From positions 1 to 64,000 of the forward strand of contig KV423931.1 in the NCBI GenBank assembly GCA_001632435.1: 64,000 bases of DNA, given 5' to 3'. The translations under genes and the position numbers were made by a program. Shown piece by piece: positions 15,017 to 56,060 of this stretch (its first letter is position 1; every line of letters starts with the position of its first letter). The DNA comes from Calocera cornea HHB12733. Its lineage: Eukaryota; Basidiomycota; Dacrymycetes; Dacrymycetales; Dacrymycetaceae. The notes beneath the pieces were generated by a model that was not told where the DNA came from, did no database searches, and worked only from the letters and a program-made list of their open reading frames with translations.

Positions 15017-18000
15017 TCATGATGAAGTCTTGACCTTTTTCTTCTTCTGTGTCTGACCGCTCGCTTCGGAATCAGCTACGCGTTTCAGCTTTTTAGGCTT
15101 GGGAGACTCGATATCGACTACATTAGTGACCAATTGGGCATTTACCACAGACGGCGTTTTTGGTTTCTTGCTGGTTGGCGCTGGTTTTGCGATCTCCATT
15201 TCGGGACGCAAAGCCTTCATAACTTCACTGGCAAGGTTGCGGACAGATGCCGCGTTGGAATGCTCCTTCTCAAGACGTACGGCGAGCGCTTTTAGTGCGG
15301 ATGGATCCCAGACAGTGTCTTGCTCGACCCCGAGAACGGTCTTGGATGACGCCCGTATGCCACGGTGCAAGCACTTAAGCAGATCGCGAACATAATCGGT
15401 GGGGAATGAAGACGCGTCTAATGCCTGACTGAGTGCTGCAAGGACGGTCTTCCGGACGGATGTGAAGAATTCGATGAGTTGCTCGCTCGACGCGTTCTGC
15501 CGGTACTCAGCATCTGCGTAACGCAAAGTGTGAAAAAATTGAACATACCTGGCTTACAGGCTGTTTGAACAAGAGGACCAACAGATCAAGAAGCTTCCGC
15601 TGATTGAAGCGGTTGACGGCATCGCGATCCACCATGAGATTCAAGATCGTGTCCCGAAGTGCCCATCCACCGACTGGAACAGAAGTGATAAGTGTGCTGA
15701 AGAGCGTCACAGGCACGCCTGGTGACCTCCGCATGACGAAGACTTTCAGGGCATCACTGTAGAAAGAGACGAGTGCGGGGCTGGCCTCCTTGCCCTGTCG
15801 TGAGAGCACTTTTGTCAAGAAGGTGCAGCAGTGCAAGACAACCGGTGCGGGGTCTACTCGACGCATTCGATCATAAACCTCCCTGAGTGTCTCCACAGCG
15901 AGCTCGGGAGTCGCTGGTTCGGGGAGTTCCTTGGCGCCGCCCAGCCTCGAAGTGAGAACACCAGTTGCTCTCTTTGAAAGCTGAGCTTCATCAGAGCTTG
16001 AAAAAAGTGCGATGTCCAGCAAGGGGACGATCAACTGCAGGAGGAGCTCGCTGGTCGGTTCATTCTTCATGAAGATATCAACGAGATCAATGACCCGGAT
16101 CCTGAAATGTGTTGCTTCTCGCTGCGCATCTAGATGACAGAGGATTAGTTGGGAACTCGTGGATCGAGACTGAAGTACGCACTTTTCTGGCCCTTCTTGT
16201 CACCCACCTGAGACCTTAACGCAGCAGCCAGCTGATCATCTAGTTGGAGCATGGTATCGTCGTCAACAATGTCCTCGTCGCTGTCATCCTCGTCATCGTC
16301 TTCTTCCTCATCAGTGTCGGCGGCCAAGCCATTTTCCCTCAGCACCTGCCCCAAGCGAGCTCGCAGGGCTGCATTGGCGGCCGTCTGAGCCTCGTCCTCT
16401 TCGTCACTGTCGTCCTCTTCATCAGTAGTCTCCTCCCCTCCATCACTTTCCGCTTCATCTGCATCGACGTTGTCTGAGTCATCATCATCGGAATGCATCT
16501 CCACATCCTCTTCTCCGTCCTCGTCATCTTCCTCGCCTGCTGATTTGCTCTCGAGTTGCTAAAATGTTTATGAGTATGGCTCTACCGACAAAAGAATCAT
16601 GACATACAGCCGCGATGAACTGGATGGTCGACGGTAGCACCTCCTTCGTCAACCCGTCGAAGACTTGTGCCACCAACTCCCTTGCGTGCCCAGTGTCGCT
16701 TTCGAGCAGCGCCATGAGCACATCCATGAGCATGTCGATGGGCGCAGCTTCGGCCTCTTCTTCAGAGTTTTCAGAAGTGCTCGCCAGCCCGAGAAGCCTT
16801 GACGTTGCGTTGAGTGCGTCCTAGACGAAATGAGCATACAACAGAGGCGGCTACGATGTGCTCAATACTTACGGGCAGAATCTCGGACACGTCGATGTCG
16901 TCGGCATAAGTTTGCAGAGTCAAATATTGCAAGACCAGTACACATGATGCCGTAGCTGCCGTCTTCTCATTTGGCTTTTCGACAATATTGCTGAGGGTCG
17001 CTGCAGCTCCGGATCGGAGCCCCACAATCTCATCGTCGGCTTCGAGCACAGGCATGACATGCTTCTTGTCTTTTGACAGCTTCTGCAATAGAGCCGTAGA
17101 CCGCCCGAACCAGTCGACGGCTTGTAGCTCGCCCGTCACCTTGCCGTTCTCCTGCGGTTTCGCTGCGGGTAACGTGAGGTTCGGGCTGAACACCCTCTGG
17201 CAGTGTGACGTACCTTTGCTTGACTTGCGTTGCGTATTGAGCAATGTCAACGAGGCATAAAGCTTTTCGCGGCACTTTTCCTGCGTGGCCGAAGAGAAGA
17301 GCGGCTCGGGCAGGGTATGCAGCTGAGCAGATATCAGACAATGGTCATCGAAAGATGACATGGAGCTCACAGAGGCAATAGAGCTCTTTGAGCTTGTCTT
17401 CTTCGTAATGAAGAAACCATGAACCGTAAGGAACTCCATGATGCTGCCAACCCATGCGTCGTTCTTCGGAATCGCGGTGTTGCGGAGTAAGTTCTGCAGT
17501 TGGTCAAGGATCCAAGCACGTTTGGTATCAATACCGGTGGCGCTGCACGAGATCAGAATTCCATCGAAAGATTTTTAATTGATACACACTTTTCAGCCTC
17601 TACACCTCCATACGCAGCTTCGAGCAAGAACTTGACATAAGCCTCTACGCCAACAGCGTCCATCGATTCGACCAGCGACTGCACAGTCTTCGTCTTGGTG
17701 ATCTGGTCAAACCGCTGATTACCGTTCTTCCCCGTCAGCTCGGCGACCAGGGTATACGCGACAGAAGGGTTGTGTTGCGTGACCTTGTGGATCTCGTCAA
17801 CAAGGGCAAGAGCAGCCTTGTGGAGGAATCGATCGGGTCGGGAAAGGTGGTTGATCCACGTTCGCATGAAGTTGGGTGTGAATATGAGCGGGAGTTGGGC
17901 AGCAGGTATGCGAGGAAGGGCCTTGGCAAAGACTTGGAAGCCCCATGACTTCCGCACGTCGGAGGCAGTCGAGGCAAATAGCGAGTCGTCCACCACCAGC

Positions 18001-26869: not shown

Positions 26870-28234
26870 CTACACATCCCTGTACCGCGACTTGAGCGTC
26901 GCCTTGGGGTCCTCCGTCCTGATCATCTCGTCCCACCTGCGCGCCCAAATCCAATCAGCCCTCCCCCACACTCCAAAAGCGGAAAACGGGAAACGGAAAA
27001 CGGGAAACGGAAGAGGTGCTTACGGCGCAAACACGAACGGCAGGTTGTCGGGGTGCAGCTCCGGGTAGTGCTCGGCGATGGAGGCGAGGATGAGCTCGTA
27101 CAGGATCTGCAGGATGGGAGGGGTGGGTCAGTTCCAGGCACGCTCGGCTCGGCCCCTGCCCCCGCCAGCCCGCTCTAGGCCACCGCCGCAGTATCATAGC
27201 CAGAGTGGGCGCCAGCGGCGGCCCGGCGGGGCTGGCAGGTGCACTCGACTCACCCCGTACGCCTCGGCATTCACATGCAGCCCATCCTGCATGTACTTCC
27301 CCAGCCCCTCCTCCGTCCCGCCCGCGCCCTCCCACAGCTTCTCGTAGATATCGACGACCGGCACCCCGTGCGCCTCGCCGACCGCTTTGACCGCCGCCGC
27401 ATACCGCCGCGTCGTCGCCTGGTCCCTGTCCAGCGGCTCTGGGGGCGTGCGGGCGCGGAGGATGGCCCCGCGCTGGAGGGAGGAGAAGGGCGGGGGCGTT
27501 ATGAGCAGGAGCCGGGTTTGCGGCGAGTGGTAGGGCGAGGTGGGGTCCCGCACTAGGGTGAGGAGCGTGTTCATGTTTTCGGTGAATTGGGGGAGGGGAG
27601 ACTGTGCGGATGGGCATGGGCATGGGCATGAGATATCTGAGAAGAGCAGAAGGGGAAAGGGGCAAGGGGCGTACATGCTGCACTTTCGGTGGGAGGCACG
27701 CGTCGTTCGCGCCTAGAGCCCCCTCCCGCTCAGCCCCTCAGTCGTCCATAACACCACAAGCAGCAGTACGCACCGAACCAAAGAACGAGCAGCTTGATCT
27801 TCTGCGCGCCCACCTGATCGGCGCGCGGGAACACCTGGCGGAACACTTCCAACCCCCAGGCAGCGTTGTACCCCGACAGGCCGCGGTTGATGATGTCCAT
27901 CCGGCGGGCGTACTTGTCTGCGGGGCGCATGAGCTGGACGTCGTGTGCCCAAAGCGGGTAGGGTAGGGTAGGAGGACTGGGCAGGGGACGTACATGCGAG
28001 CCGTTGGGCGAACCCACCGGGCTCCCAGCCGCCCTGCGTGAGCGAGTCGCCAAAGAGCATGATCGCGTCCATGTTGCCTGCCATAGCGCTTCCCGTCTCG
28101 TTGCCAGTCAAGTTCCTGGCCCAGGAGGTTTCTGAAATGAAAGCGGTGCGTTGCTGAGTGTCTGGAATGTGCTGCCAGAAGAAACCGGCGAGAAATACGG
28201 TGATGAGCGAGAGGAAATGGAGGGCGATGTGCAT
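26870..28234 (-). CDS. IAH1: IAH1-like SGNH/GDSL esterase
   Basis: Likely hydrolyses small acetate esters such as isoamyl acetate. Exons: 28234-27994, 27917-27774, 27712-27675, 27601-27254, 27106-27024, 26936-26870; 306 aa. SGNH blocks are visible: block I FGDSLTQGG with the nucleophile Ser, block II NRGLSGYNA with Gly, block III FGANDACLP with Asn, and block V DGLHVNAEAYG with Asp and His. Unlike yeast IAH1, the first ~50 residues are an extension with a hydrophobic segment (LHFLSLITVFLAGFF), so the protein may be anchored in or secreted through the ER membrane. An internal later start is possible. Intron 5 has an AAACGG-type short repeat near 26983-27013. Confidence 0.87.
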
Positions 28235-50665: not shown

Positions 50666-51003
50666 ATCTAGCATAATGAACGCGGGACCTGTGTAGCTTA
50701 GTATTTTCTTTTCTCTACTCCATGACTAGATCGGGCAAACGCAATGATATGCCATGAACAAGCAAGTACCTCGTGTGAAACGCAGATACCTTAGGTGTGA
50801 TTGTGCTTCCAAAAAATTTCGCGAGTGAAGGTCGTGGTCTATAGTATTCTTACGTATGCGAGCGGCCTCACGCAGACAGACACAGCGAGCATATACGTTC
50901 ATTGACTTCTTGATTCTTTACTACTACATCCTATACCGACAGCTTCTGAATCTTGGCTTCTCGGCCGGACCGCACATGCCATGCACAATAACTCCGCTCA
51001 CGT
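50666..51003. other. convergent 3' region of HSP70 and FPR1
   Basis: AT-richer than its surroundings, as expected for two facing 3' UTRs. No gene seen. Confidence 0.5.
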
Positions 51004-51698
51004 TTAGTTGATCTTGAGGAGCTCGACCTCGAAGTTCAGGGTGGAGTTGGGAGGGATGACGGACCCAGCGCCACGGGAGCCGTAAGCCTATGTATGCAGG
51101 AGAACGCTCATCAGTGTCCAGCTTTCCGATGCAAGTCAGCCGTCGGAACGCACGTAGTCAGGCGAGCAGGTGAGAATCGCCTTCTGGCCGAGGGAGAGCT
51201 GGGGCACGCCCTCGTCCCAGCCTTTGATGACGCGGCCGACACCGATTTGGGTGACGAAGGGGTCGTTGCGGTCGCGGGACGAGTCGAACTTCTTGCCGTT
51301 GGTGAGGGTACCTGGGCGGTAGCGGATGAGCGATGGACGAAAAAGGAAGGTGGATTACACATACCGACGTAGTGAATGGTCACGCTGGCAATCAGGGACG
51401 TTAGCATATATGGACCAAGAACAGCGACGGCATGTATGCTCACGTCTGCGGGGCAGGTCAGTTATGGCCAGGCAGCGCGGACGGAAGGCGAGAGTACTCA
51501 CGTCTGGTCATCCCAAAAGCGCAGCAAAAGCGTGGTTACAACTTAGAGGGTACATAGACGACGACAGCTTGGCGTGCTTACCACCAGGCTTGGGGAAGTT
51601 CTGCGCGGTACGTGATCAGCGCCATCGATCCGACATCTGTGTTGACCTAGACGTACCTTGCCGTCACCAGGAGCGATTGTCTTGATTTCAACACCCAT
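51004..51698 (-). CDS. FPR1: FKBP12 peptidyl-prolyl isomerase, spliced through two 2-nt exons
   Basis: Cytosolic proline isomerase and receptor of FK506 and rapamycin. Exons: 51698-51657, 51600-51582, 51503-51502, 51445-51444, 51384-51365, 51311-51154 and 51087-51004; together exactly 327 nt and 108 aa, the family length. The two AC dinucleotide exons complete Asp21 (G+AC) and supply two bases of Thr22 (AC+C). Without both, the conserved PKPGDTVTIHYVG is lost and the frame shifts. Each is flanked by an AG acceptor and a GTGAGT or GTGAGC donor. Active-site residues are intact (Met numbering Tyr27, Phe37, Asp38, Trp60, Tyr83, Phe100). It is the most conserved copy of the array and likely the main FKBP12. 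Confidence 0.93.
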
Positions 51699-52146
51699 TC
51701 TTGTAGAGGACGAAGTGAAAGAGCGAGGGTAGAGGAGTCGTGGGGCGGTGGTGGCAGGACGAAGGAGGGATGAACGTGTGGCCTTGGCCAGACGTGCGGC
51801 AATTTAAGTTGTTCAGCAGGGTCACAGACTCGGAAGGAGTGACGAAATCGGAAAAGAGGGTGAGGGTCTCCTTGGTCCGTCCGCCCTGTGGCGCGATTGT
51901 TGGGTCTTGGTCTCGCTCCTGCCTTTTCGGGAATGGGCTACATCATCACCACACGGCTGCGAACACAGCATCTCCTCTTCTGCATGTGCGCTCAACACAC
52001 ATGTGCCGCTGCCGCGTTCGTCCAGAACGCCAACCAAGCGCCTGGGATCAACGGCAGTTCTATGGCCGGCATTGTCGTCACAAAACTGGTGTCATTGTCA
52101 CGTACACAGATTCTTATCCTCCGACCTTCTTGGCAACACAGCACCC
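51699..52146. other. spacer between FKBP copies 1 and 2
   Basis: Contains the promoter of FPR1. No gene seen. Confidence 0.5.
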
Positions 52147-52810
52147 TCAGTTGATCTCAAGCAGCTCTATTTCAAACCTCAGAGTCGCGCCTGACGGTAT
52201 GATGGGCGGAAACCCGCGCGAGCCGTATGCCTGCCATCATTGAGATCACCCTCTCATGAAAGAAAGCAGCAGTAGCTCACATAGTCAGGCGTACAGATCA
52301 ATGTCGCCTTTTCACCGAGGGACATCCGGGGTATACCCTCGTCCCAGCCTTTGATGACCTTGCCTACACCTATCTCGGTTTCGAATGGCTGGCCGCGATC
52401 TTGGGAGGAGTCGAACTTCCTACCATCGGCTAGATAGCCTGAGACAGCGATGAGTACGGTACATAGATGACCCGCAGTGTAGCTTACCGACATAATGAAC
52501 CGTGATCCTACCACAAAACAAGTTAGTTACATGGAACGCATGTCTCAAGGAGCTGATCACGTCTACAAGCTCTGGTAAGGGCGATGTCTGCGAGTACAGC
52601 GGAAAGCACTCACACCTGTCTATCTCCCGAACGCACGCGGGACAGTGAAGTAGTGAGGCGCAGCAAAAGCGACATCATGGTGCGTCTTACCCTGTTTCTT
52701 TGGAAAGGTCTGCGTATAAGATGCAAGTTTGAGATAAGATGTTCTTATGCGAGGGACATGCTTCGCACCTGTCCGTCACCTGCTTGCATGGTCTCAACTG
52801 TGACGCCCAT
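52147..52810 (-). CDS. FKBP12 paralogue 2 of the tandem array
   Basis: Exons: 52810-52769, 52709-52691, 52619-52616, 52507-52488, 52438-52281 and 52230-52147; 327 nt, 108 aa. Exon lengths match FPR1 (42, 19, ..., 20, 158, 84), except that one 4-nt exon, ACAG, replaces the two 2-nt exons and gives Asp-Arg before ITVHYVG. FKBP landmarks are intact: [38 protein letters not shown] and [11 protein letters not shown]. All ligand-pocket residues seem kept, so it should be an active isomerase. An unused AG-AC-GT element at 52562-52561 remains in the following intron. Confidence 0.85.
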
Positions 52811-53230
52811 GTTTGACGACTTGTCTCGTTGGGGTGGTCGATAGACAGAGGCACCGCGATCTCGGTGGCTTATATGCTCGCATCGCAGTCCTTAGCTGGG
52901 GGGACAATCGGGAGAGAACCCTGCTGTATGGTATGCGGACAAACCCGCTGGCACCGGGTGCCGAAGACGCCCGCACCCTCATGGTTCAAACCACGTTTCA
53001 AAGGAGCGAAATCACCGGATCGCAGCAATCTTACTCGATCGAACACAATTAACCTCTGGTCAGTATCTGACAGTCCTGATAACATCTCGTCGGGAGGACT
53101 GCATTCGTCTATATTCAATGGAGCGACCACCGTCCAGTGTTCATGACTGGCGCCGTATACGGACAGAATCCTCCCCGCACGGTACATATTTCACATTCAA
53201 GTTGCCAGGCGTATATTCTTTGCCCCGTCT
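52811..53230. other. spacer between FKBP copies 2 and 3
   Basis: Promoter of copy 2 and decayed 3' end of copy 3. No further gene seen. Confidence 0.5.
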
Positions 53231-53893
53231 TCAGTTGATCTTAATCAACCCTATATCGAACTTTAGAATCGAGTTCAGAGGTATGAGCCCCGGAAGGCCG
53301 AGCGCGCCGTATGCCTGCGCCATTAAGGTCACCCTCTCGCGAAAGAAGTAGCAGCAGCTCACAAAGTCAGCCGTGCAGATCATTGTCGCCCTTTCGCTGA
53401 CGGACATCCGGGGAATACCTTCATCCAAGCCCTTGATGATGTTGTTCTCCCCGATCACGGTGTGGAATGGACGGCTACCGTGGGAGGTCCCGAACTTCTT
53501 GCCTCCGAACAGATAGCCTAAGATGTGACAGCTGTGGGCATAATACACGGAGCGATTGGCAGAGCATGTCACCATCATAATGAACCGTAACCCTTCAATA
53601 ACGTGCCATTATGTTGAAGGGGTGTCTCACTAGGGAAGCCCACACGTCTACAAGCCGCGTTAAGTTCCATTATGGGAGGAACTACGAAAAGCACTTACAC
53701 ATATCTGTTGTTCGATTAAACACAGGAACGCGTTGTTGTGAGCGGCAGCCTGATCGACATCGGTGAATGCTTATCGCCCTTCTTCGGAAATGTCTGTTTC
53801 AGAGTCGATAGTTGAGCACGGAATGACGGTGACAAACGGCCTAGTCCACACCTTCCTGTCACCTGCTTTCGTTGTTACGATCTCAATGCCCGT
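53231..53893 (-). pseudogene. FKBP12 pseudogene, copy 3 of the array
   Basis: The same exon plan is visible: 53893-53852, 53793-53775, 53704-53701, 53592-53573, 53517-53363 and 53314-53231, 324 nt in all. Three lesions are visible. The start codon is ACG (53893-53891) where the others have ATG. The second donor is AT instead of GT (53774-53773). One codon is missing from exon 5. The reading still gives FKBP sequence (VTVHYDG, GGKKFG, KGLDEGIPRM, KFDIGLIKIN), but Asp38 is Gly and Trp60 is Leu, so the ligand pocket is damaged. No stop codon interrupts it, so decay is recent or weak expression persists. ACG initiation is known in fungi, but the donor change would still need explaining. Confidence 0.82.
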
Positions 53894-54636
53894 TTTTTCA
53901 CGACGGGATCGGTGCGGATGACCTCTGCAGACGTAGTGCGACCTCGATGGTTTATATTCCCCCCCTCAGACCTGAGTGCGGAACGCAGGGGCGAGGGTGC
54001 GGCAGTATGGCGTGCGGACTGAACTCGCTGGCACCAAAGGCTGAACATGCCGGTGACGCTAACGGGCAGAACAATAGCCGGCTCGTATATGTCTCTGTTC
54101 TGTCTCAAGCTGATTCGCTTCGGTATTGACGGTCGTGTTCTGAGATGCTCGCAAGATGTTGGATGTCTGTGTTGTAGCTGAGAAGGCCAACAACGCCTCC
54201 TCGCCAACACTGCTTCGTTATAAACTGCTGCTAGCCTCAATTGAACATGCCTTCCCAAGCCGCGATTGAAGGACGATTTGCATAGAGTCTCGTCCAGCGA
54301 TGTTCCTGCGGTGCATAAGCTACATGGTGAAATTGGCTTCAGACACATTGCATGGGGCCAGACGGCACCATGCGAATGTGACACCTCCCGTTGCAATGCC
54401 TGCATAACGCATGGATTTTCATTCTTACGATCGTACAAAAACTCGACGTGCGTCATCAAGAAGTGTGGAGGGAAATCGGTTATTGTCTCTGCCCGTCCCC
54501 CGTCCTGTGCTGGAAAGACGGCCTATTGTCCGTTCTTGCGTCGTTGTTCGTCGCGTTCTCGCTTCTTGGCCAAGGCCTTCTCGCGTGGACTGACGTAGAC
54601 ATAGGGTTCCAGCCAAGATGGGGGAATCGGGCACCG
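53894..54636. other. spacer between FKBP copies 3 and 4
   Basis: About 740 bp, no gene recognised; an open frame on the minus strand (53875-54459) overlaps the pseudogene start and resembles nothing. Confidence 0.45.
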
Positions 54637-55262
54637 TCAAGAGATTCGGAGCAGCTCGATTTCGAATACCAGTGTTGCACCAGGAGGGATGTTAGGCGGA
54701 TAGCCACGGTTGGCATACGCCTTCCGAGATGGATTAGTGAGTAACTCGATTGCCAAGGAATGAAGTACTCACAAGGTCCGGCGTGATAGTGAGGTTCGCC
54801 TTCTGGCCTACGGAGAACTGTGGGATGCCTTGATCCCAGCCCTGGATGACTTGGCCTATGCCCAGCTCGAAGGAGAACGGTAGACGGCGGTCACGGGACG
54901 AGTCGAAGATTCTCCCATTAGTGAGCTTGCCTAAGGGGCAGGGGGTCAGGGGTCGTTATCAGGCGTGCACACCGGCACTCACCGACATAGTGTACTGTCA
55001 CGGTCTAGATCGCATATTGGATGTCAGCGCGGAGTTGCAAGCTCAAGATGGGTCCATACGCACGTCTGATTTCCATACGTGTCGAGGAACGCACGTGCTC
55101 ATTTAGCTCTCAGCTGGAAGGGGTGGGAATGACCTGCGCTTACCGCCATTCTGCGGGAAAGTCTACAGGCAGTTTTTGGTCAGGATCACCGTAGCCCACG
55201 GTCCGCTGTGGAACACGCACCGTGCCATCGCCTGGCCTGAGAGTCTCGATAGTGATAGGCAT
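54637..55262 (-). CDS. FKBP12 paralogue 4, with a single 2-nt exon
   Basis: Exons: 55262-55221, 55162-55144, 55065-55064, 55004-54983, 54930-54773 and 54720-54637; 327 nt, 108 aa. Here one 2-nt AC exon completes Asp21, and the next exon starts with ACC for Thr22. The exon of 22 nt therefore corresponds to the 2-nt plus 20-nt pair of FPR1. Pocket residues are intact ([46 protein letters not shown]). The C-terminus is RIS instead of KIN. The Cys of the LTCSPDY block is absent (LTITPDL), a minor change. Likely an active but divergent isomerase. Confidence 0.87.
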
Positions 55263-56060
55263 GATAGCGAGTCAACTTAGGCAAGCTGAGGTGGAGCAGA
55301 CAGGCTGTAAGTGGTAGAGAGGCACTGCCCAGGCGGGCGACGTGGCGTAGTAGACCTCTTGCAGTGCCTCGTTATATACACATGTCCTGGCCCAACCGAG
55401 AGTGCAGACCCGCGATGGGCAGGAGCACGATCGGTAGTTACGATCGCCCTTCCGGCGGCATCATCAACGCTCGTGAAACGAGGACGGCGGAAGCATGTTA
55501 CAGAAGGCGGACAACGAGGCGGACTCGGCGCGGCAGCCGTTGGAAGCAAGCGTTCAGGTGGTCGTCCCAGTCTGCAGTGGAGCGAGCTTATGTCGGGGAA
55601 GACGGGGAGGATGACCTGCATGGATCAGGTCGGATTGCTGTACAAGGCAGTTGAGCATGCACGCCGCTGGGATTGAAACGCGGCAAGATGTCCCGCAAGA
55701 TCCGAATGATAGCCAATTCCCTTATATGGAGCTGGGGCTGATAACCTTGCCAGCGCACACTCAGAATAACAGGCGGCACTCGGGAGTCTTCATAGCATTG
55801 ATCGCGATGACGTGCTAATCCCGTCGCGCCATTGTACGCGGGCTACGCAGCAGACCAAACAGGGAAAACGGAAAAAGGGGGTAACAAAACTAAACAGCGC
55901 TGCAGACTAACGACTACCTCGTCCTTGATGCTATCGCAATGTCCCTCCTTCCCGATCGTGAATGCGCATACGGGAATGAATAATGAGAGTCATATGACCA
56001 TATCCATCAAATCACGGCGGAAGGATCGGCCCGGATTCGGCCCGGATACTCAACAACCGC
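55263..56060. other. intergenic, no gene seen
   Basis: Promoter of FKBP copy 4 and 3' region of the B56 gene. Short reading frames only. Confidence 0.5.

What the first reader, a model, noticed from the sequence alone, without database searches (positions are those of the whole stretch)
51365..51600. Two consecutive 2-nucleotide exons in the FKBP12 gene
In the FPR1 gene the conserved Asp-Thr before strand 2 is built from G | AC | AC | C. Each AC sits between a good acceptor (ACCAG or CGCAG) and a good donor (GTGAGT or GTGAGC), and the introns have branch-like CTGAC and CTAAC sequences. Only with both exons is the total exactly 327 nt, 108 aa, with PKPGDTVTIHYVG intact. Exons this small are rare in any organism, and two in a row would need splicing by intron definition. 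Skipping either shifts the frame, so the array could be controlled by splicing.
Basis: partly seen in the sequence, partly recalled or inferred. Interest (0 to 1): 0.9.

Follow-up and report, generated by a model that had tools for sequence, protein, structure and literature searches.

The report
Two-base exons in a fungal gene
A jelly-fungus gene for the drug-binding protein FKBP12 appears to be assembled through two consecutive exons of only two bases each, which the public gene model misses; it is an extreme case of a known oddity and still needs RNA proof.

Summary
Splicing both in gives a 327-nt, 108-aa FKBP12 reading PKPGDTVTIHYVG. This is the only exact-length path with all-consensus splice sites and the best fit to FKBP12 homologues; 0 of 3000 shuffles matched it under strict site rules.

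One claim is wrong: it is not the only 327-nt path. A single 193-nt GC-AG intron also gives 327 nt, reading GN for DT, and is exactly the public model P0001. A spliced aligner picks either, depending on its intron cost.

The tandem copies tip the balance. Copy g4 needs one 2-nt AC exon (192 of 192 references; 188 of 192 at a harsher cost). g2 probably uses one 4-nt exon. g3, probably decaying, reads through its lost donor. The three public C. cornea models found go wrong at or beside this spot.

The same genome also has 5-nt Rab11-like and 6-nt actin exons. One-nucleotide exons are already published, so this is a new variant of a known kind. Regulated splicing has no support here.

The parts
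51657..51698 (-). FPR1/FKBP12 copy g1, exon 1 (42 nt, ATG)
51582..51600 (-). g1 exon 2 (19 nt), ends CCTGGTG before donor GTAAGC
51504..51581 (-). g1 intron a (78 nt, GTAAGC..CAG; no clear branch motif within 50 nt of its end)
51502..51503 (-). g1 exon 3, 2 nt (AC)
   Evidence: AC exon at the homologous place in g4
51446..51501 (-). g1 intron b (56 nt, GTGAGT..CAG, CTGAC 16 nt from its end)
51444..51445 (-). g1 exon 4, 2 nt (AC)
   Evidence: similar AG|AC|GTG in g2 and g3
51385..51443 (-). g1 intron c (59 nt, GTGAGC..CAG, CTAAC 20 nt from its end)
51365..51384 (-). g1 exon 5 (20 nt)
51154..51311 (-). g1 exon 6 (158 nt)
51004..51087 (-). g1 exon 7 (84 nt, stop TAA)
51385..51577 (-). rival reading: single GC-AG intron of 193 nt (exon 2 then runs to 51578); the path of the public model P0001
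52147..52810 (-). tandem copy g2; exon 3 is ACAG (4 nt, 52619-52616) or GT (52615-52614) plus AC (52562-52561)
53231..53893 (-). tandem copy g3, probably decaying (ACG at the start position, donor GT now AT at 53774-53773, Trp of KGWDEG now Leu); its exact-length path extends exon 2 by 4 nt to a GC
54637..55262 (-). tandem copy g4; one 2-nt exon AC (55065-55064), the second AC fused to the next exon (55004-54983, 22 nt)

Best explanation
g1 is an ordinary FKBP12 gene whose Asp-Thr codons are assembled as G|AC|AC|C from two consecutive, constitutive 2-nt exons. Each flanking intron is recognised by intron definition. Shown by sequence: consensus sites, intron lengths, frame and protein fit. Inferred: the splicing itself, its constitutive nature and its order. 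Introns b and c carry clear branch motifs and typical lengths, and intron a is the longest and lacks one, so I expect c and b to be removed before a. That would fuse AC+AC to exon 5 (22 nt, then 24 nt) before intron a is spliced, so the spliceosome never has to define a 2-nt exon. The tandem copies keep the same 4-nt requirement and meet it differently: 2+2 in g1, 2 with the second AC fused to the next exon in g4, probably 4 in g2, and 4 nt of read-through in g3.
For: Of 9 exact-length open paths in g1, the 2+2 path fits a profile of 155 homologue motifs best (52.4 against 41.7 bits for the GC-AG path) and is the only one with all GTRNG donors and YAG acceptors; 0 of 3000 strict shuffles match it. 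g4 independently needs a 2-nt AC exon: 39.0 bits against 24.5 for the next path; 5 of 3000 strict shuffles as good; chosen with 192 of 192 references at intron cost -9 and 188 of 192 at -14. Position 21 is Asp in 169 of 183 scorable homologues and the pair is DT in 77 of 183, GN in 0 of 183 (10 further rows lacked the motif; P0002, probably Dacrymycete, is among the 183). The public g4 model P0199 is reproduced exactly by using the donor after AC and the next acceptor, with a start inside intron a. The same genome has 5-nt exons in two Rab11-like genes and a 6-nt exon in actin. 3 of 124 distinct survey introns are 190 nt or longer; the median is 55 nt. For the order: a plant study reports that most of the microexons it analysed this way had more reads with the downstream intron removed first (PMC8831610, passage).
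Against: No RNA evidence. A spliced aligner without an exon-length prior splits on g1: 89 of 192 references chose 2+2 and 103 of 192 the GC-AG path at intron cost -9; 192 of 192 chose GC-AG at -14. Under loose splice rules 3 of 600 shuffles matched the g1 score, 57 of 600 the g4 score and 38 of 600 the g2 score. Intron a has no clear branch motif in g1 or g4, and intron sequences of g1 and g4 are not detectably similar (a: 254 of 500 shuffles as similar; b: 206 of 500), so homology of their introns rests on position. 2 of 124 survey introns were aligned with GC donors, so GC donors are not excluded here. A Dacryopinax model (P0125) also reads GN.
Confidence: 0.8

Rival explanations
1. A single 193-nt GC-AG intron joins GGTGGTAA to CGTGACC. 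The protein reads PKPGGNVTIHYVG and there are no 2-nt exons in g1.
For: The public C. cornea model P0001 is exactly this path. It also gives 327 nt, and is chosen by 103 of 192 references at intron cost -9 and by 192 of 192 at -14. g3 reads GATAA|GC into a consensus-like GDKVTVHY. Dacryopinax P0125 also reads GN.
Against: The GC sits 4 nt into the donor GTAAGC, so any GTAAGC donor offers it. Its context AA|GCACGC departs from the strong AG|GCAAGT expected of GC donors (recalled). 3 of 124 survey introns are 190 nt or longer. GN occurs in 0 of 183 homologues. In g4 there is no single-intron exact-length path. It leaves two perfect AG-AC-GTGAGY units at intron spacing unexplained.
Confidence: 0.13
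2. Both paths are used: 2+2 as the main route and GC-AG as a fail-safe that also gives a full-length FKBP12 (DT and GN isoforms).
For: Both are open and 327 nt long. g3 shows that a copy that lost the GT donor can still be read through to the GC.
Against: No transcript data; the GC is an automatic by-product of GTAAGC.
Confidence: 0.05
3. g1 is a decaying or mis-assembled copy and the dinucleotides are chance.
For: g3 beside it looks decaying (ACG at the start position, lost donor, Trp lost).
Against: All other g1 exons are intact, the protein is up to 85% identical over its full length to FKBP12 of other fungi, and 0 of 3000 strict shuffles reach the score.
Confidence: 0.02

Closest known systems
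1-nt exon of CYP621A genes in Fusarium (PMC12940212; parts 1 and 2 of 3 of the text read)
   Same: An ultra-small exon inside a conserved motif of a fungal gene, inferred from frame and conserved length, absent from public gene models.
   Different: One exon, not two in a row; 1 nt; confirmed there by RNA reads; the authors call it the first for a fungal gene.
1-nt exons of plant APC11 and VPS55 (PMC4674806 and PMC8831610; passages read)
   Same: Exons below 3 nt, missed by annotation; [quoted passage not shown] in most monocots APC11 has lost the flanking introns.
   Different: Single 1-nt exons, and VPS55 is alternatively spliced in some plants. The adjacent microexons shown in those passages are 5 nt and 12 nt in rice.
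Microexons of basidiomycete P450 genes, Phanerochaete chrysosporium (PMC1184071; passages read)
   Same: Short introns and very short exons (down to 6 bp) in a basidiomycete.
   Different: None below 6 bp in the passages seen.
Spliceosomal twin introns, or stwintrons (PMC6616335 and others; titles and starts of abstracts in the search listing)
   Same: Adjacent fungal introns removed by consecutive reactions.
   Different: Stwintrons are nested, one intron inside a splice signal of the other; here 2 coding bases separate the introns, and leaving them out gives a stop at codon 22.

Membership tests
FKBP12 (FKBP_C, PF00254) | Whole FKBP_C domain above the Pfam cut-off | tested here: met
   Predicted g1 protein 118.6 bits, profile 1-94 of 94, cut-off 21.1; GN version 113.3 bits
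FKBP12 (FKBP_C, PF00254) | Single-domain protein of about 108 aa with close FKBP12 relatives | tested here: met
   108 aa; up to 85% identical to FKBP12 of other fungi over full length; chains named FK506-binding protein 1A matched end to end, such as 5j6e_A
Ultra-small constitutive exon (as APC11, CYP621A) | Exon of 1-3 nt between consensus acceptor and donor, needed for frame and a conserved motif | tested here: met
   the GC-AG path is a second way to keep the frame, not the motif
Ultra-small constitutive exon (as APC11, CYP621A) | Inclusion seen in RNA | not testable with these tools
   No transcript collection is held; RNA support of the public models is unknown
Ultra-small constitutive exon (as APC11, CYP621A) | Conserved in related genes | tested here: inconclusive
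   g4 has one AC exon (robust); g2 has 4 nt or 2+2; other Dacrymycetes were seen only as proteins whose residues at this spot are odd (GN, AS, GT, ES or a deletion)
Stwintron | One intron splits a splice signal of another, with no exon base between | tested here: not met
   Joining exon 2 to exon 5 without the four bases gives a stop at codon 22
GC-AG intron | GC donor in a strong context, exact frame, conserved protein | tested here: inconclusive
   Frame exact, but weak context, 193 nt, and GN in 0 of 183 homologues

The most novel reading that the evidence does not exclude
The FKBP tandem array of Dacrymycetes inherited a pair of consecutive 2-nt exons. Its copies are natural variants that solve the same 4-nt problem in different ways (2+2, 2 fused to the next exon, 4, read-through), and public FKBP models across the class are wrong at this spot. 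Copies of one gene within 4.3 kb would form a ready series for how 2-nt exons arise, are spliced and are lost.
Probability: 0.5. Interest if true: 0.75.

Novelty: new variant of a known kind. Interest (0 to 1): 0.62.

Why it matters
Spliceosomes are large and a 2-nt exon cannot be bound as a unit. Two in a row would force strict stepwise intron definition and make the order of intron removal directly testable in a small gene with tandem variants beside it. It also shows an annotation fault: the three C. cornea models replace the missing 4 nt with splice-site bases, drop a beta strand, or start inside an intron, so public protein sequences of a much-used drug target family carry false residues if the reading is right. 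With the 5-nt Rab11-like and 6-nt actin exons of the same genome, it points to Dacrymycetes as a good place to study ultra-small exons.

Tried and rejected
Rejected: the stwintron reading (no exon base between introns), because it gives a stop at codon 22. Skipping exons 3 to 5 keeps the frame (100 aa in g1) and is how public model P0121 treats g2, but it removes the VTIHYVG strand. A 2+2 reading of g2 (GT+AC, 28.8 bits) is not excluded, but the 4-nt ACAG reading scores higher (32.6 bits; FKBP_C 116.1 against 112.3 bits) and has all-consensus sites; my first model of g2 (and the query) was the 2+2 one. Origin of intron c by duplication of intron b: no support (51 of 500 shuffles as similar).

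Led nowhere: viral-contig scan (three distant relatives, not used). Paper searches for FKBP12 with microexon, FRR1 introns, Dacrymycetes introns and mini-exon with basidiomycete listed nothing on this feature; only titles and starts of abstracts were seen there. Passages of PMC8042270, PMC8022950 and PMC13149111 gave no 2-nt exon. No fungal DNA collection was available, so C. viscosa and Dacryopinax gene structures could not be read.

Errors of mine: one search used wrong coordinates for g3 and printed a nonsense frame. One search repeated it with one boundary 3 nt too far (an extra Val); the aligner's g3 exons, checked (324 nt, 107 aa), are the ones to use. One search aligned the survey loci on one strand only and was redone on both. 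The 2-nt exon that one search lists in the actin-like locus L029 is not believed: it lies at the ragged start of that gene, between introns of 115 and 222 nt.

Full report
What is there. The minus strand of 51004-51698 encodes an FKBP12. Taking exons of 42, 19, 2, 2, 20, 158 and 84 nt gives 327 nt and 108 aa with no inner stop and a whole FKBP_C domain (118.6 bits). The two 2-nt exons are AC at 51503-51502 and AC at 51445-51444. Their contexts are ACCAG|AC|GTGAGT and CGCAG|AC|GTGAGC; the three introns are 78, 56 and 59 nt. The pattern YAG-AC-GTRAGY occurs twice in the whole window, both strands, and both are these. Skipping one AC gives a stop at codon 79, skipping both a stop at codon 22, and retaining intron a, b or c brings an early stop.

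Source. The top database protein is FK506-binding protein 1 of Calocera cornea HHB12733 (P0001). It is 108 aa long and differs from the prediction only at residues 21 and 22: GN against DT. Two more C. cornea proteins (P0121, P0199) lie on a contig of the same listed length (279,897 bases) and match copies g2 and g4; P0001, P0121 and P0199 are each reproduced letter for letter from the window. The window's contig is 278,698 bases. The window is therefore almost certainly C. cornea, class Dacrymycetes.

The rival. The public reading of g1 follows from a GC donor four bases inside the GTAAGC donor: GGTGGTAA|GC, a 193-nt GC-AG intron, also 327 nt. I listed all paths with GT or GC donors, AG acceptors, introns of 40 nt or more and up to three introns. 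In g1, 1534 paths gave 9 exact-length open readings. The 2+2 path scored 52.4 bits against a profile of 155 homologue motifs; the GC-AG path scored 41.7. (The profile took only motifs of the form F...G.....HYVG among the first 198 listed proteins, the Dacrymycete ones left out; those with names are largely fungal, with a few bacteria.) Only the 2+2 path has GTRNG donors and YAG acceptors throughout. With those sites required and introns of 45 nt or more, 0 of 3000 dinucleotide shuffles of the interior reached its score; with loose sites 3 of 600 did. The GC-AG path survives every shuffle by construction, since the donor hexamer was held fixed. A spliced aligner of my own, with no exon-length prior, gave 2+2 with 89 of 192 references and GC-AG with 103 of 192 at an intron cost of -9, and GC-AG with 192 of 192 at -14. 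Sequence alone on g1 therefore favours 2+2 only if consensus splice sites, intron length and residue conservation are weighed together. Of 183 homologues with a scorable motif (10 more had none), position 21 is Asp in 169, the pair is DT in 77 and GT in 1, and GN, AS and ES are found in none (P0002, probably a Dacrymycete, is in that set).

The tandem copies. Three further FKBP copies lie upstream of g1 on the same strand. g4 (55262-54637) gives 327 nt with one 2-nt exon, AC at 55065-55064, followed by a 22-nt exon that begins with the second AC. This was the best path (39.0 against 24.5 bits) and was chosen with 192 of 192 references at cost -9 and 188 of 192 at -14; 5 of 3000 strict shuffles and 57 of 600 loose ones reached its score. 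g2 (52810-52147) also gives 327 nt. There a single 4-nt exon ACAG (Asp-Arg, 32.6 bits, all-consensus sites) beats GT+AC (Gly-Thr, 28.8 bits); the aligner took the 4-nt exon with 175 of 192 references at -9 and 90 of 192 at -14, and otherwise a longer exon 2 with a GC donor and one extra residue (17 and 102 of 192). 6 of 3000 strict and 38 of 600 loose shuffles reached the g2 score. g2 and g3 keep TTGTAG|AC|GTG in the stretch where g1 has its second AC (the alignment does not put them in one column), which I read as a relic. g3 has ACG where the start should be, AT for the GT of the intron-a donor, and Leu for the Trp of KGWDEG. Its only exact-length path for this stretch runs 4 nt further to a GC and reads GDKVTVHY. 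It is probably decaying. So the four copies fill the same four bases in up to four ways.

Public models. P0001 (g1) reads GN. P0121 (g2) jumps from PKKQG to YLADG and loses the strand. P0199 (g4) starts at an ATG inside intron a (55102), yet uses the donor after AC and the next acceptor. No public model for g3 was looked for. In Dacryopinax the models read GT (P0020), GN (P0125) and ES (P0201); in C. viscosa AS (P0007) and a deletion (P0203). GN and GT fit a donor read as coding (GTAA, GTAC), and the Ser of AS and ES fits an acceptor AG read as coding before a C. That is inference from protein alone; ES could be a true conservative change. Two JGI proteins that share a listed contig length of 4197 bases (P0002, P0200) read DT; whether they come from DNA or cDNA is unknown.

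Other tiny exons in the genome. 27 of the 37 scored 250 or more and gave 127 introns and 100 internal exons. Two Rab11-like genes have a 5-nt exon (AAACC and GAACC) in the Ser-Asn-Leu codons, actin has a 6-nt exon (TTGCAG) and an Arf-like gene a 12-nt one. A 2-nt exon listed for locus L029 is not believed. Of 124 distinct introns the median is 55 nt, 3 are 190 nt or longer, and 2 were aligned with GC donors. None of these has RNA support here.

How it probably works. Introns b and c have typical length, strong donors and clear branch motifs; intron a is longer and lacks one in g1 and g4 (in g2 there are CTCAC and TTCAC, 38 and 30 nt from its end). I infer that c and b go first, by intron definition, fusing AC+AC to exon 5, and that a goes last onto a 24-nt exon. 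A plant study reports that most of the microexons it analysed this way had more reads with the downstream intron removed first (PMC8831610, passage). Regulation is possible but nothing here speaks for it; constitutive inclusion is the simpler view.

Prior work. 1-nt exons are reported for Arabidopsis APC11 (PMC4674806, passages), for APC11 and VPS55 across plants (PMC8831610, passages) and for Fusarium CYP621A (PMC12940212, parts 1 and 2 of 3 read). [quoted passage not shown] Adjacent microexons of 5 and 12 nt are shown in rice (PMC8831610). Searches under six phrasings of 2-nt exon (one unrelated paper), for microexon with 2-nt (two papers, no 2-nt exon in the passages seen), for consecutive micro-exons in fungi (two papers, listing only) and for FKBP12 with microexon (one paper, listing only) showed no report of two consecutive 2-nt exons. 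The library holds only open-licence papers, and supplements were not searched.

Noticed in passing
L040 (G000:C24 near 15841-16221, minus) and L048 (G000:C24 near 27490-27732, plus): Two Rab11-like genes each carry a 5-nt exon (AAACC, GAACC) completing the Ser-Asn-Leu codons, between GTRNG donors and YAG acceptors.
   Followed up: partly
L028 (G000:C5 near 333816-335054, minus): The actin gene has a 6-nt exon, TTGCAG, between CAG and GTAATT.
   Followed up: partly
53231-53893: FKBP copy g3: reading frame open (324 nt), but ACG at the start position, AT for GT at an intron donor, and Trp-to-Leu in KGWDEG; probably a decaying copy, or one with a non-ATG start.
   Followed up: partly
50950-55600: Tandem array of four FKBP12-like genes; Dacryopinax and C. 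viscosa proteins matching different copies share listed contig lengths, so the array may be conserved in Dacrymycetes.
   Followed up: partly
public records P0001, P0121, P0199 (C. cornea): The three public FKBP models of this array that were found appear wrong at or beside the same spot (false GN, lost strand, false start inside an intron).
   Followed up: yes
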